Below are positions 17,714-21,760 of a stretch of DNA of 64,000 bases, one piece after another. The first letter of the stretch is position 1. The number at the start of each line of letters is the position of its first letter. Position numbers and translations under genes: made by a program. Under the pieces are notes generated by a model. It had not been told where the DNA came from. It was given only the letters and a program-made list of their open reading frames with translations, and did not search any database. Source of the DNA: Acinetobacter sp. XS-4 (GTDB taxonomy: Bacteria > Pseudomonadota > Gammaproteobacteria > Pseudomonadales > Moraxellaceae); the NCBI RefSeq assembly GCF_023920705.1, contig NZ_CP094657.1:930001-994000 (forward strand). Reading direction: 5' to 3'.

Positions 17714-19360
17714 TTATTTTGATTTATGAAAGATAAACACATCATAATTTCGATAATGTAGTGTTTTAACAGATGGATCTTTAGTTGCAAAATTATTAGG
17801 CTGACTTACGACAATCAAATCTTGCTTTTGCGTTAAAGCATCTTGAAGCTGTTGCTCACTCCATAAGTATTTTTTGCGTTGTGGTTCAAATAATAAACCA
17901 TCTTTAATTTCTAAAGATGCACTATCTGAATGCACTGTATCCCATTGATTTACAATATATACAGGCTGTTTTAGCTGTAAAAGAAATGGAACATCATAGA
18001 AATAGTAATTGTAGAACACTATTTTTGTAGACGGGGTTATGTACTCAGCAAAACTTGTTTGTCCTACATTATTTTTGGTATCTAAAATACGAACGGCAAA
18101 AGGGACTGAACTACACAAAACAATTAAACTGATAAAAATATAGTTCAAATAGTTTATTTTTTGATTTTTATATAACCAGATTAAAGTCAGCGGAAGCACA
18201 ATTAAGAGAGTGCCAATAGCATAAATAAATACGGCTTGGTTTTGGAAAAAGGGTTGATGTGCACGCATGAAATGCGGTGTAGCAGTAATACCTATTCCGA
18301 CAAGCATAATAAATATAGGTAAACCCCAAACCTGTAATTTGGTTTTATATTCACTTTCAAGTACTTGGTTGATAACAAGAGCCAAGAAAACAGCCAGTGG
18401 GGGCACAGCTGGTAAAATATAGCCAGCTAGTTTAGACGGAGGAATAGAGAAGAAAACTGTGACAGAAATAAACCACCATACAAGTAGGGTAAGTAAAACG
18501 GATTGCTTATACTTCTGAAATACGGCTTTAATAGATTGAAATCTACTTGCAAAAATCCATGGTAAAAAACTGACAAATAAAATAAGCAGATAGAAACACC
18601 ATGGTTGCTTATTATTAAACTCTTTTGAACTAAATCGGCTAAATTGCTGGTCTATAAAGAAATAATGTAAAAATTGTGGGTATTTAAGTTGAACTGCATA
18701 TAGCCATGGACTAACCAGTAATATAAATAGCAAAATCCCCAAAGGGTTAAGTAATGAAGGGATTTTTTTCCATTGTTTGGTGTAGAGCAACCATGGTAAA
18801 AGAATCATGCCGGGAATTAATATCCCAATCAGACCCTTACTTAAAAACGCAGCAGCACCTGCAAAATACCCTAAAAATAAAATAGATTTACGTGCTGAAA
18901 TTGTGAAATCAACAAAACATAAAACACTAACGGTAATCCATGAAGCAAGGAGTAAGTCATGATTAATATATTCACTGCTACCAAAAAATAGTAAATTGGT
19001 GCCTAAAATAATGGCAGTAAGTTGTGCTACACGTTCTGAAATGTGATTTCTAACGAATAAGAATAGGCTGATGAGCATGAGTGTAGCTGCTAGCACTGGA
19101 ACTAATCTCAACACCCAAATATGCATACCAAAAAGTTCCATAAATATAGAACTTAACCAATGTAATAGAGGAGGCTTGTGCATAAATGGCAAGCTATTGA
19201 TACGGGGAATTAACCAATCTCCCGACTCAAACATAGATCGACTAATGTCTCCGTAGCGTCCTTCATCTGGTACAGAAAGAGGTCTTATCCAAGACAAAAC
19301 AAACAGCCAAATCGGTAAAAATATTAATAAGAATTTGGAACTACGAAGCCATTGCTGCAT
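17714..19360 (-). CDS. ArnT/FlmK-like glycosyltransferase (GT39/PMT family)
   Basis: This 548-residue polytopic inner-membrane glycosyltransferase uses a polyprenyl-phosphate sugar donor. The N-terminal membrane helix is followed by the family motif PDEGRYGDI (catalytic acidic residues in the first periplasmic loop) and PFMHKPPLLHW. About 11-12 hydrophobic helices precede a periplasmic C-terminal domain. ArnT moves L-Ara4N, and Francisella FlmK galactosamine, from undecaprenyl phosphate to lipid A. As the last gene of an operon with a YdjC deacetylase and a GT2 enzyme, it best fits the FlmK role of adding galactosamine to lipid A. The substrate is inferred from context. Confidence 0.82.
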   Translation of the reverse strand: MQQWLRSSKFLLIFLPIWLFVLSWIRPLSVPDEGRYGDISRSMFESGDWLIPRINSLPFMHKPPLLHWLSSIFMELFGMHIWVLRLVPVLAATLMLISLFLFVRNHISERVAQLTAIILGTNLLFFGSSEYINHDLLLASWITVSVLCFVDFTISARKSILFLGYFAGAAAFLSKGLIGILIPGMILLPWLLYTKQWKKIPSLLNPLGILLFILLVSPWLYAVQLKYPQFLHYFFIDQQFSRFSSKEFNNKQPWCFYLLILFVSFLPWIFASRFQSIKAVFQKYKQSVLLTLLVWWFISVTVFFSIPPSKLAGYILPAVPPLAVFLALVINQVLESEYKTKLQVWGLPIFIMLVGIGITATPHFMRAHQPFFQNQAVFIYAIGTLLIVLPLTLIWLYKNQKINYLNYIFISLIVLCSSVPFAVRILDTKNNVGQTSFAEYITPSTKIVFYNYYFYDVPFLLQLKQPVYIVNQWDTVHSDSASLEIKDGLLFEPQRKKYLWSEQQLQDALTQKQDLIVVSQPNNFATKDPSVKTLHYRNYDVFIFHKSK

Positions 19361-19369
19361 ACATAATCC

Positions 19370-19750
19370 TTAATGTTGAAATGCAAAAAAACGGTTAAGT
19401 AAGAAAGTCACAATTGATGTCAGGACAATAGCTACACAAACCAAAGTTGAAATAGGGGTGCTGAAATACAGATTAGAAAGCAAGAGAAAGCTCTCATTAA
19501 ATAAAAAGCCTAATCCAGCGACTAACGTAAATTTGGGTAATGTTTGTCGATGAGAAATATGCTGGGCTTTAAAAGTAAAAATACGATGCCCAAAATAGCT
19601 CACCCAATAGGCAAGTAAAAAGGCGACTAAATTGGCATACTGCAATGCAATGTTTCGTTTAAACAAGAGCATGACAATACTGTAGTGCGTAAGTGCTGCT
19701 GCGGCCCCAGTCGTGGTAAACCGCGCGAGCTGAAAAATATGAGCAAACAT
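19370..19750 (-). CDS. GtrA family membrane protein
   Basis: This 126-residue protein has four hydrophobic helices and the GtrA-family pattern (FTTTGAAAALTHYSIV near the start, YWVSYFGHRIFTF mid-protein). GtrA proteins are thought to flip polyprenyl-phosphate sugars across the inner membrane in GtrABC-type systems. Its position between a GT2 enzyme (which loads the lipid carrier) and a GT39 enzyme (which unloads it in the periplasm) fits that role. Its start overlaps the GT2 stop by one base (TAATG), indicating translational coupling. Confidence 0.82.
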   Translation of the reverse strand: MFAHIFQLARFTTTGAAAALTHYSIVMLLFKRNIALQYANLVAFLLAYWVSYFGHRIFTFKAQHISHRQTLPKFTLVAGLGFLFNESFLLLSNLYFSTPISTLVCVAIVLTSIVTFLLNRFFAFQH

Positions 19751-20730
19751 TAGAAACTAGAGAACGTGTTTTCTGAGTGAGTGATTGGGTGTTCTTGCTT
19801 AATACGAGAATGTTCGGTTGAAACAATATATTTTGGTCGATTTTTAACTTCTGCATAAATTCGGCCAATGTATTCACCTAAAATTCCAATGAATAACAAT
19901 TGAATGCCACCTAATAGCGTCATGCCTGCTGCAAGAGTTGCCCAACCAGGTACAGAAATTCCTTCAATCAGGGTTTTAATAATGATCCAGACACCGTAAC
20001 TCATAGCGCCTAAAGCCAATAGGGCACCTAGATAAATACAAATTCGTAAAGGTAAATCTGAAAACCCAGTTAAACCAGACATTGCTAGATTAAATAATGC
20101 TTTCACGTTAAAACTAGAACGACCATGTTGACGATCTTGTTCTGAGAAATTGATTCCGATACTTTTAAAACCGACCCATGCATAGAGGCCTTTCATATAA
20201 CGATTTTTTTCTGGAAGTTGTTTAATCGCTTCGACAACTTTTGCATCAAGAAGTCTGAAATCACCAGCATTTTCAGGAATATCAATAGGAGAGCTTAAGT
20301 TTAGAATACGGTAGTAACCTTGGGTTAGAGTCCGTTTTAGCCATGATTCAGTGGTACGATTACGAATGCCATAAACCATGTCATAACCATTTTTCCAAAG
20401 GTTAATCATGGTCGGAATTGCTTCAAAAGGATGTTGAAAGTCAGCATCAATGAGCAGTGCAACTTCACCATTTACATGGTCTAAACCTGCGCTTAAAGCA
20501 GCTTCCTTACCAAAATTTCGCGATAGTTCCAGCACAACTAAAGGATAATCTTCGATCATCGTTTGCAAGATCGGAATAGTATCGTCTTTGCTGCCATCAT
20601 CGACCACAATAATTTCATAGCTAAGATTTTGTTGCTTTAAGCTGTTTGCTAAAGCTGGAATAAATGTCTTTAAATTCTCTGCTTCGTTATAAGCGGGAAC
20701 AACGCAGGATAAAAAAGGTTTTGTGCTCAT
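19750..20730 (-). CDS. GT2 glycosyltransferase (ArnC/GtrB/FlmF2-like)
   Basis: This 326-residue family 2 glycosyltransferase transfers a sugar from a nucleotide to undecaprenyl phosphate on the cytoplasmic face. The N-terminal catalytic domain has CVVPAYNEAENL, VVDDGSKDDT and the metal-binding IDADFQHP. Two C-terminal membrane helices follow (about 230-255 and 265-290), as in ArnC, GtrB and DPM-like enzymes. The start at 20730 (MSTKP) overlaps the preceding deacetylase stop as ATGA; the longer frame from 20775 is rejected. In Francisella the equivalent FlmF2 loads GalNAc, and I infer the same role here. Confidence 0.85.
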   Translation of the reverse strand: MSTKPFLSCVVPAYNEAENLKTFIPALANSLKQQNLSYEIIVVDDGSKDDTIPILQTMIEDYPLVVLELSRNFGKEAALSAGLDHVNGEVALLIDADFQHPFEAIPTMINLWKNGYDMVYGIRNRTTESWLKRTLTQGYYRILNLSSPIDIPENAGDFRLLDAKVVEAIKQLPEKNRYMKGLYAWVGFKSIGINFSEQDRQHGRSSFNVKALFNLAMSGLTGFSDLPLRICIYLGALLALGAMSYGVWIIIKTLIEGISVPGWATLAAGMTLLGGIQLLFIGILGEYIGRIYAEVKNRPKYIVSTEHSRIKQEHPITHSENTFSSF

Positions 20731-21521
20731 TGCATTGCCCCTAGTCTGGTAAGTTGGATGCCATTTTTCTGGCAATCAAGAGGGAACTGATCAGAACAAA
20801 AATATTGGTATTCTTGGATACGTGCATACTGGATTGGATCTTGCTCACTTGGTGTAGAAAGTGAGGGATGACACATAATCAGTAAGTGATCTTTTGCTTG
20901 AGCAAGCCAATATTGGTTCAGTTCGGCATAATCAGTTTGTTTAAAGTCATAGATACCAGCGAAATATTCATTTTGGCTAAACTGGTAGGTTTGGCATGCT
21001 TTTGCTAAGGCATTTGATCCAAGTGCAGAAAGCATATGAGTTTTAAAACGATAATGGGGTAGATAAATTGGATGTTGTAAATTACGTATCCAACCAGTAA
21101 ATTTTTTCTCTTTTAAAAGTTGCAGCAAAATATCCCGTATAAACGGAAATTGATGAATATGTTGGTGTCCATCAATAAAATCGGGTTGTTTTCCCATGAC
21201 TGAAACAAATGCATCCCATTGTTCTTCAATACATTGGGTAATTAATTCACGGTTAAGATTTGATGACCATGCGCGAAACATAAGTGCAGGTAAGGAAAAA
21301 ACCGTATTACCTGAAGTAAACGCATGAGTGAAATTTAAGTGTAAACCAATGTCAATTTGATTCGATAAAGGTTTAAGTTTGGCAGCAGCAGTTTCCCAGA
21401 GCTCAGATTGGGTCATACATGAGGTCGCTTGAAGAGCTCCTCTTTCAATTAACTGAATAATTGCATTAGATATCTCTGCATTCATTGCAAAGTCATCTGC
21501 GCAATAACATACCTTTGCCAT
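20727..21521 (-). CDS. naxD: YdjC/ChbG-type carbohydrate deacetylase (NaxD-like)
   Basis: This 264-residue YdjC-family polysaccharide deacetylase has metal ligands visible in YCADDFAMN near the N-terminus and DGHQHIHQFP mid-protein. In Francisella and A. baumannii, NaxD of this family deacetylates the GalNAc-undecaprenyl phosphate intermediate to give galactosamine, which then decorates lipid A and raises polymyxin resistance; in A. baumannii the gene is reported to be under PmrAB control. Being first in an operon with GT2, GtrA and GT39 genes, and preceded by PmrA-type half-sites (21606-21633), it fits NaxD well. The start is either 21521 (MAKV, chosen) or 21536 (MTEF). Confidence 0.75.
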   Translation of the reverse strand: MAKVCYCADDFAMNAEISNAIIQLIERGALQATSCMTQSELWETAAAKLKPLSNQIDIGLHLNFTHAFTSGNTVFSLPALMFRAWSSNLNRELITQCIEEQWDAFVSVMGKQPDFIDGHQHIHQFPFIRDILLQLLKEKKFTGWIRNLQHPIYLPHYRFKTHMLSALGSNALAKACQTYQFSQNEYFAGIYDFKQTDYAELNQYWLAQAKDHLLIMCHPSLSTPSEQDPIQYARIQEYQYFCSDQFPLDCQKNGIQLTRLGAMQ

Positions 21522-21605
21522 ATCAAATTCCGTCATAGAACAGGGTAGCAGAGTTACCCTTTTAGGCTGCTGAAAAACTAGACAGTTTTACTATGAAGAA
21601 ATTTC

Positions 21606-21633
21606 CTTAATTCCAACTTAAAGTTTTTTTAAG
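21606..21633 (-). promoter_or_regulatory. Putative PmrA-binding region with three half-sites
   Basis: On the plus strand, CTTAAT, CTTAAA and TTTAAG are each separated by exactly five bases (21606-21611, 21617-21622, 21628-21633). In the direction of the operon they read CTTAAA, TTTAAG, ATTAAG. Each fits the HTTAAD-N5-HTTAAD motif I recall for Acinetobacter PmrA. A CATAGT hexamer (4 of 6 matches to -10) lies 10 bases further towards the gene. The site is about 85-110 bases before the naxD-like start. Confidence 0.6.
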
Positions 21634-21760
21634 GTTTTATGACAATTGTTACTAATTAATAATTTGAATTTATTGGTTTTTTTATATTTTTATGGTCAAT
21701 CGTTTTTAAGAAATGACTTTTAACTATCAGATTTCATAGTAAATAAAAATATAATTTATG

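What the first reader, a model, noticed from the sequence alone, without database searches (positions are those of the whole stretch)
21606..21633. Three PmrA-type half-sites at exact 11-base spacing before the naxD-like operon
CTTAAT, CTTAAA and TTTAAG are each separated by five bases, so two overlapping HTTAAD-N5-HTTAAD boxes share the middle half-site. The naxD-like gene is the kind of gene PmrAB controls in A. baumannii. Three half-sites instead of two could mean tandem or stronger PmrA binding and a link to colistin response of all four genes. The half-sites are AT-rich, so chance is possible, though the even spacing argues against it.
Basis: partly seen in the sequence, partly recalled or inferred. 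Interest (0 to 1): 0.7.

Follow-up and report, generated by a model that had tools for sequence, protein, structure and literature searches.

The report
PmrA promoter with extra half-site
The spot looks like an ordinary switch site for PmrA, the regulator that turns on polymyxin-resistance genes in Acinetobacter; comparison of related species suggests that the working part is the pair of repeats nearer the gene, not the pair named in an earlier paper, and that the third repeat is a later addition in one group of species.

Summary
The three half-sites are real and exactly spaced (21606-21633). HTTAAD is its own reverse complement and naxD lies on the minus strand, so the promoter reads CTTAAA(hs1)-N5-TTTAAG(hs2)-N5-ATTAAG(hs3)-N10-CATAGT. 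The bare triple is near chance (4 places in the genome, 3 for the reversed control). In context it is not. The genus PmrA-type promoter is HTTAAG-N5-HTTAAG, then 10 bp, then a -10 element: 30 of 30 pmrC loci read, and 123 sites in 60 genomes against 17 with a 12-bp gap. At naxD, hs2-hs3 with this gap is kept in 27 of 28 orthologues; hs1 is present in 9 of 28, all in the A. calcoaceticus-baumannii (Acb) group. The box printed for A. baumannii naxD corresponds to hs1-hs2, so it is probably one register (11 bp) too far upstream. hs1 is not clearly better conserved than its flank, but half-sites at -11 also occur at dgkA and at a PAP2 gene next to pmrB, two further likely targets. Whether hs1 strengthens binding is untested. 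Verdict: a known kind of site, with a probable register correction, a lineage-specific third half-site and a larger predicted PmrA regulon.

The parts
21628..21633 (-). hs1, CTTAAA, distal half-site, Acb group only
   Evidence: 9 of 28 orthologues
21617..21622 (-). hs2, TTTAAG, shared middle half-site; first half of the core box
21606..21611 (-). hs3, ATTAAG, proximal half-site; second half of the core box
21590..21595 (-). predicted -10 element CATAGT, 10 bp from hs3
   Evidence: CATAGT or CATATT in the nine Acb loci
20727..21536 (-). naxD-like YdjC-family deacetylase gene; the start is probably the later ATG at 21519-21521
   Evidence: PF04794, E 1.7e-48; relatives align from residue 4-6
19750..20775 (-). 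GT2 glycosyltransferase gene (listed TTG start; a later ATG at 20728-20730 overlaps the naxD stop)
   Evidence: (PF00535)
19370..19750 (-). GtrA-like membrane protein gene
   Evidence: PF04138
17714..19360 (-). ArnT-like glycosyltransferase gene, last of the operon; a convergent gyrA-like gene follows
   Evidence: (PF13231, PF02366)

Best explanation
This is the PmrA-activated promoter of the naxD operon. A phosphorylated PmrA dimer sits head-to-tail on hs2-hs3 (TTTAAG-N5-ATTAAG), 10 bp upstream of the -10 element, in the -35 zone, and recruits RNA polymerase as at the pmrC promoter. hs1, one register (11 bp) further upstream, is a derived feature of the Acb group. It is either neutral or an accessory contact, for example a second register hs1-hs2 that competes with or feeds the productive one. 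Shown here: sequence, spacing, conservation. From papers on A. baumannii: PmrA binds the naxD promoter and is needed for its expression. Inferred: which pair is productive, the -10, and the manner of activation.
For: Same box-to--10 distance as pmrC of the same genome (TTTAAG-TCATT-TTTAAG-10 bp-TACAGT); pmrC core with TANNNT in 30 of 30 loci read. Genus spacing test: N10 123 sites in 52 of 60 genomes (reversed control 15), N12 17 sites in 14 of 60 (control 13). naxD: hs2-hs3-N10-NANNNT in 27 of 28 orthologues, hs1 in 9 of 28. Acb invariant columns: hs2 and hs3 12/12 against 36/60 upstream, p 0.005. A pmrCAB locus is present and its PmrA receiver domain differs from the A. baumannii one at 7 of 126 positions by my count.
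Against: The naxD -10 is CATAGT, which does not fit the TANNNT of the spacing test, so naxD is not among the 123 sites. The hexamer 10 bp after hs2 (GGAAAT, GAAAAT, GAAATT or GGATAT in the nine Acb loci) fits the loose mask NANNNT in 5 of 9 and by count GAAAAT equals CATAGT in matches to TATAAT (4 of 6); the case for hs2-hs3 rests more on constancy and on loss of hs1 elsewhere than on -10 quality. hs1 is present in 9 of 9 Acb orthologues. No binding or start-site data were seen for this register.
Confidence: 0.75

Rival explanations
1. The printed register is right: PmrA activates from hs1-hs2, and hs3 is only AT-rich promoter sequence.
For: PMC9431647 names CTTAAG-AAAAC-TTTAAG as the A. baumannii naxD box (passages); PMC10927774 shows binding to a naxD fragment and its loss on mutation of TTTAAG (section 3.6 read). 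hs1 is in 9 of 9 Acb orthologues; in 5 of 9 a loose NANNNT lies 10 bp after hs2.
Against: 19 of 28 orthologues lack hs1 but 18 of these 19 keep hs2-hs3. The hexamer after hs3 is CATAGT or CATATT in 9 of 9, that after hs2 varies in four forms. TTTAAG fits hs2, shared by both registers, so its mutation would not tell them apart; which bases were changed I could not see.
Confidence: 0.1
2. All three half-sites are used: hs1 adds binding strength or a second register for a PmrA dimer, and selection keeps it in the Acb group.
For: HTTAAD at -11 from the core is the commonest of 54 offsets at naxD (9/27), PAP2 (5/25) and dgkA (13/18); other offsets 0.6-2.5%. Triple plus N10 plus NANNNT: 20 sites in 60 genomes, reversed control 2; 3 naxD, 5 dgkA and 2 pmrC among the 20.
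Against: At naxD hs1 has 5/6 invariant columns against 36/60 upstream (p 0.26; with its spacer 0.045); at PAP2 1/6, and 5 of 30 loci only; at dgkA 5/6 against 50/60. pmrC 0/30. PAP2 and dgkA were found through the triple search, and related genomes are not independent; runner-up offsets are close at naxD (8 at -38) and PAP2 (4 at -47).
Confidence: 0.2
3. The arrangement is chance in AT-rich DNA and naxD here is not under PmrA.
For: Bare triples are as frequent as the reversed control (4 and 3); 8 of the 24 directional matches in the genome lie wholly inside ORFs.
Against: hs2-hs3-N10 in 27 of 28 orthologues; genus-wide spacing preference; published PmrA dependence of naxD in A. baumannii.
Confidence: 0.03

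Closest known systems
A. baumannii PmrA box at pmrCAB, eptA-1 and naxD (HTTAAD-N5-HTTAAD)
   Same: Same hexamers, same 5-bp spacer, same gene naxD (PMC9431647, PMC10927774, PMC12654582, passages)
   Different: Printed naxD box is hs1-hs2; conservation here points to hs2-hs3, and a third half-site and the fixed 10-bp gap to the -10 were not mentioned in the passages that I saw
Enterobacterial PmrA box (K. pneumoniae pbgP, S. enterica)
   Same: Two hexamers 5 bp apart, bound head-to-tail by a PmrA dimer (PMC3973317, passages)
   Different: Half-site letters differ (CTTAAT and CCTAAG at pbgP); two half-sites, not three

Membership tests
PmrA box promoter | Two HTTAAD half-sites with a 5-bp spacer | tested here: met
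   two overlapping pairs
PmrA box promoter | Position as at pmrC: 10 bp between box and -10 | tested here: met
   hs2-hs3 to CATAGT 10 bp; pmrC 10 bp; for hs1-hs2 inconclusive (loose -10 in 5 of 9)
PmrA box promoter | Conservation in orthologous promoters | tested here: met
   hs2-hs3 27 of 28; hs1 9 of 28
PmrA box promoter | PmrA encoded in the same genome | tested here: met
   pmrC, PmrA-like and PmrB-like genes in L014; PmrA receiver matches A. baumannii PmrA structures
PmrA box promoter | Bound by PmrA and PmrA-dependent | not testable with these tools
   Published for A. baumannii naxD, not for this species
Three-half-site PmrA promoter (proposed) | Third half-site kept by selection | tested here: inconclusive
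   naxD p 0.26 for hs1 alone, 0.045 with spacer; PAP2 not conserved; dgkA no contrast
NaxD (YdjC-type deacetylase) | YdjC domain | tested here: met
   PF04794, 166.2 bits, cut-off 29.7; the two NCBIfam matches are below their cut-offs
NaxD (YdjC-type deacetylase) | Deacetylates undecaprenyl-phosphate GalNAc | not testable with these tools
   Enzyme assay needed; no comparison with a characterised NaxD sequence was made

The most novel reading that the evidence does not exclude
Some Acinetobacter PmrA promoters (naxD and dgkA in the Acb group; PAP2 and pmrC sporadically) carry a third, in-phase half-site that offers a second, loading or competing register 11 bp upstream of the productive one, so that PmrA dimers step or compete between registers and these genes answer to PmrA levels differently from two-site pmrC.
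Probability: 0.2. Interest if true: 0.6.

Novelty: new variant of a known kind. Interest (0 to 1): 0.42.

Why it matters
naxD is one of the few studied PmrA targets in a group where colistin is a last-line drug. If the working box is hs2-hs3, the printed box is off by one register, and probes built on hs1-hs2 hold only half of it. The rule HTTAAG-N5-HTTAAG-N10-TANNNT is much sharper than HTTAAD-N5-HTTAAD, which gives 251 pairs in this genome. With a looser form of it dgkA, a PAP2 gene next to pmrB and two more genes come out as likely targets, and a diacylglycerol kinase is over-expressed in two colistin-resistant clinical A. baumannii strains with pmrB changes (PMC6330354).

Tried and rejected
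Rejected: the triple as significant by itself. Rejected: even spacing as proof of three-site binding (PAP2 hs1 not conserved). Rejected: a divergent promoter from the plus-strand match 21617-21649; the plus-strand ORF that follows is 70 aa and lies over an ABC-permease gene of the other strand. Of the 24 directional matches, 8 lie wholly inside an ORF of 90 aa or more (my reading); I chose eight nearby proteins by eye for Pfam and pursued dgkA, PAP2, the AMP-binding gene and the 116-aa gene; those behind L015, L024 and L035 were not pursued.

Limits: no G handle is named, so the published A. baumannii box was matched by its letters, which also occur in named A. nosocomialis and A. seifertii loci. 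For pmrC, PAP2 and dgkA only the best 30 loci were read, of 159, 141 and 150 genomes with a match out of 175, so those rates concern the closer relatives. naxD: 31 of 175 genomes match; G149 (34% identity) had no locus and was not read; L069 and L070 (34-36%) have no box and are not among the 28. The genus pattern searches used 60 of the 175 genomes. Paper searches for ChIP-seq (7 listed of 7) and 'PmrAB regulon' (12 listed of 47) showed no title about mapped PmrA sites in Acinetobacter; one search found no paper. Chin et al. 2015 on naxD is not held. Figures and supplements of PMC10927774 were not seen.

Full report
OBSERVATION. The 28 bases at 21606-21633 hold three HTTAAD hexamers at exact 11-base steps. 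HTTAAD is its own reverse complement, so direction comes from the gene: naxD is on the minus strand, first ATG at 21536. In that sense the promoter reads CTTAAA-AAAAC-TTTAAG-TTGGA-ATTAAG-GAAATTTCTT-CATAGT; I call the hexamers hs1, hs2 and hs3 from upstream to downstream. The bare triple is weak evidence: 5 of 100 shuffles of the window have one, and the genome has 4 distinct triples against 3 for the reversed pattern. In 20000 shuffles of the 244-bp intergenic region a triple appears in 0.11%, and a triple with a NANNNT hexamer 10 bp downstream in none.

GEOMETRY. The pmrC promoter of the same genome is TTTAAG-TCATT-TTTAAG, 10 bp, TACAGT; its box is the one printed for A. baumannii pmrCAB (PMC9431647, passages). 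At naxD the hexamer 10 bp after hs3 is CATAGT. In the genus the 10-bp rule is general: of 60 genomes drawn from it, 52 have HTTAAG-N5-HTTAAG-N10-TANNNT, 123 sites by my sum (reversed control 15), while N12 gives 17 sites in 14 genomes (control 13). This test did not start from a chosen gene. naxD itself is not among the 123, because its -10 begins with C. In this genome the looser pattern HTTAAD-N5-HTTAAG-N11-A-N3-T has 24 matches against 5 for the control.

CONSERVATION. Of 175 genus genomes 31 encode a naxD homologue; 30 loci were given. 28 are orthologues at 48-100% identity, two are distant (34-36%) without a box. hs2-hs3 with 10 bp to a NANNNT hexamer is present in 27 of 28, ending in G in 25 of the 27; the exception, L066, keeps a proximal TTTAAG 10 bp before AATAGT (sequence printed). 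hs1 is present in 9 of 28, the nine with 82% identity or more; the same promoter type is in named A. calcoaceticus, A. nosocomialis and A. seifertii loci, while A. colistiniresistens, A. brisouii and two unnamed species have only hs2-hs3. Among the nine, invariant columns are 5/6 in hs1, 6/6 in hs2, 6/6 in hs3, 5/6 in the -10 and 36/60 in the 60 bp upstream: p 0.26 for hs1 alone, 0.045 for hs1 with its spacer, 0.005 for hs2 with hs3. Against a clean verdict: 10 bp after hs2 the nine loci have GGAAAT, GAAAAT, GAAATT or GGATAT; 5 of 9 pass the loose NANNNT mask, and GAAAAT has as many matches to TATAAT as CATAGT. The hexamer after hs3 is constant (CATAGT or CATATT).

THE PUBLISHED BOX. PMC9431647 gives CTTAAG-AAAAC-TTTAAG for A. 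baumannii naxD (passages), that is hs1-hs2. PMC10927774 (passages and section 3.6 read; figures and supplement not seen) shows PmrA binding to a naxD fragment and its loss on mutation of TTTAAG. TTTAAG fits hs2, which both registers share, so this would not separate them. PMC6635527 (passages) reports naxD 15-fold up in a pmrB-mutated strain and back down without pmrA. My reading is that the printed register lies 11 bp upstream of the productive one.

IS THE THIRD HALF-SITE MEANINGFUL? Three of the four triples in the genome precede plausible PmrA targets: naxD; a PAP2-family gene next to pmrB (ATTAAA-N5-TTTAAG-N5-TTTAAG-N10-TGTAAT); and dgkA (TTTAAA-N5-TTTAAT-N5-TTTAAG-N10-TATAAT). The fourth lies near a LuxR-type gene. 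Over the loci read, an HTTAAD at -11 from the core is the commonest of 54 offsets at naxD (9/27; next 8 at -38), PAP2 (5/25; next 4 at -47) and dgkA (13/18; next 2), and absent at pmrC (0/30); other offsets run at 0.6-2.5%. Against it: PAP2 and dgkA were found through the triple search; related genomes are not independent; at PAP2 hs1 is not conserved (1/6 columns; hs2 and hs3 12/12; flank 7/60) and is in 5 of 30 loci; at dgkA the flank is as conserved (50/60) as hs1 (5/6), and in 4 of 17 Acb genomes (L143-L146) an extra base lies between hs2 and hs3. A scan for triple plus N10 plus NANNNT gave 20 sites in 60 genomes against 2 for the control; by coordinates 3 are naxD, 5 dgkA and 2 pmrC; one of the others is the plus-strand reading of this same site. 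Third half-sites thus recur at PmrA-type promoters, but selection for them is not shown.

REGULON. Besides pmrC and naxD the rule points to dgkA, PAP2, a 1332-aa AMP-binding, NRPS-like membrane protein and a 116-aa protein without a Pfam match. PAP2: a pair in 26 of 30 loci, followed at 10 bp by TGTAAT, TTAAAT or TCTAAT. dgkA: triple in 13 of 17 Acb loci; outside that group a pair in some loci only. In several genomes dgkA lies beside the PAP2 gene (G048, G050, G167, G168; coordinates), and in G048 a box lies about 40 bp before dgkA. PMC6330354 (passages and section 36 read) lists seven genes over-expressed in both of two colistin-resistant clinical A. baumannii strains with pmrB changes, among them pmrC, a diacylglycerol kinase (39 to 179 and 67 to 741) and a membrane NRPS module. 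naxD and the PAP2 gene are not among those seven. That the kinase and NRPS module are orthologues of the genes here is inferred from their descriptions.

OPERON. naxD, GT2, gtrA and an ArnT-like gene are co-directional, overlapping or 9 bp apart, and end before a convergent gyrA-like gene. All four are found in this order in 9 of 9 named loci; in L006 the GT2 match is in two pieces about 1.3 kb apart. Two papers say that the enzyme adding GalN to lipid A in A. baumannii is not known (PMC9431647, PMC12330716, passages). The GT2, GtrA and ArnT-like genes are natural candidates; the parallel with Francisella FlmF/FlmK is recalled, not tested.

VERDICT. A PmrA-type promoter. The core is most likely hs2-hs3; hs1 is an Acb-group addition of unknown effect. 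The kind is known; the register and the third half-site are the new details.

Noticed in passing
20727-21536: naxD is patchy: 31 of 175 genus genomes match although 159 of 175 match pmrC. Its start is probably the later ATG at 21519-21521, since relatives align from residue 4-6.
   Followed up: partly
17714-20775: GT2, GtrA and ArnT-like genes under the naxD promoter are candidates for carrier loading, flipping and transfer of GalN to lipid A, a step called unknown in two papers.
   Followed up: partly
L014:4801-5576 (own genome, beside pmrB): PAP2-family gene with a PmrA-type box; pair in 26 of 30 loci read.
   Followed up: partly
L039:1114-1549: dgkA with a triple PmrA-type box and a perfect TATAAT 10 bp away; a diacylglycerol kinase is over-expressed in two colistin-resistant A. 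baumannii strains.
   Followed up: partly
L040:1970-2320: 116-aa protein without a Pfam match behind a pmrC-like box; near-identical boxes occur in other genomes, e.g. G014, G016, G067.
   Followed up: partly
L039:14285-18408: 1332-aa AMP-binding, NRPS-like membrane protein with a PmrA-type pair about 90 bp before its ATG.
   Followed up: partly
about 21718-21759: An AT-rich block in the same intergenic region is nearly invariant in the nine Acb loci and far from the box; role unknown.
   Followed up: no
L006:5298-7587: In the A. colistiniresistens locus the GT2 match is in two pieces separated by about 1.3 kb, possibly an insertion.
   Followed up: no
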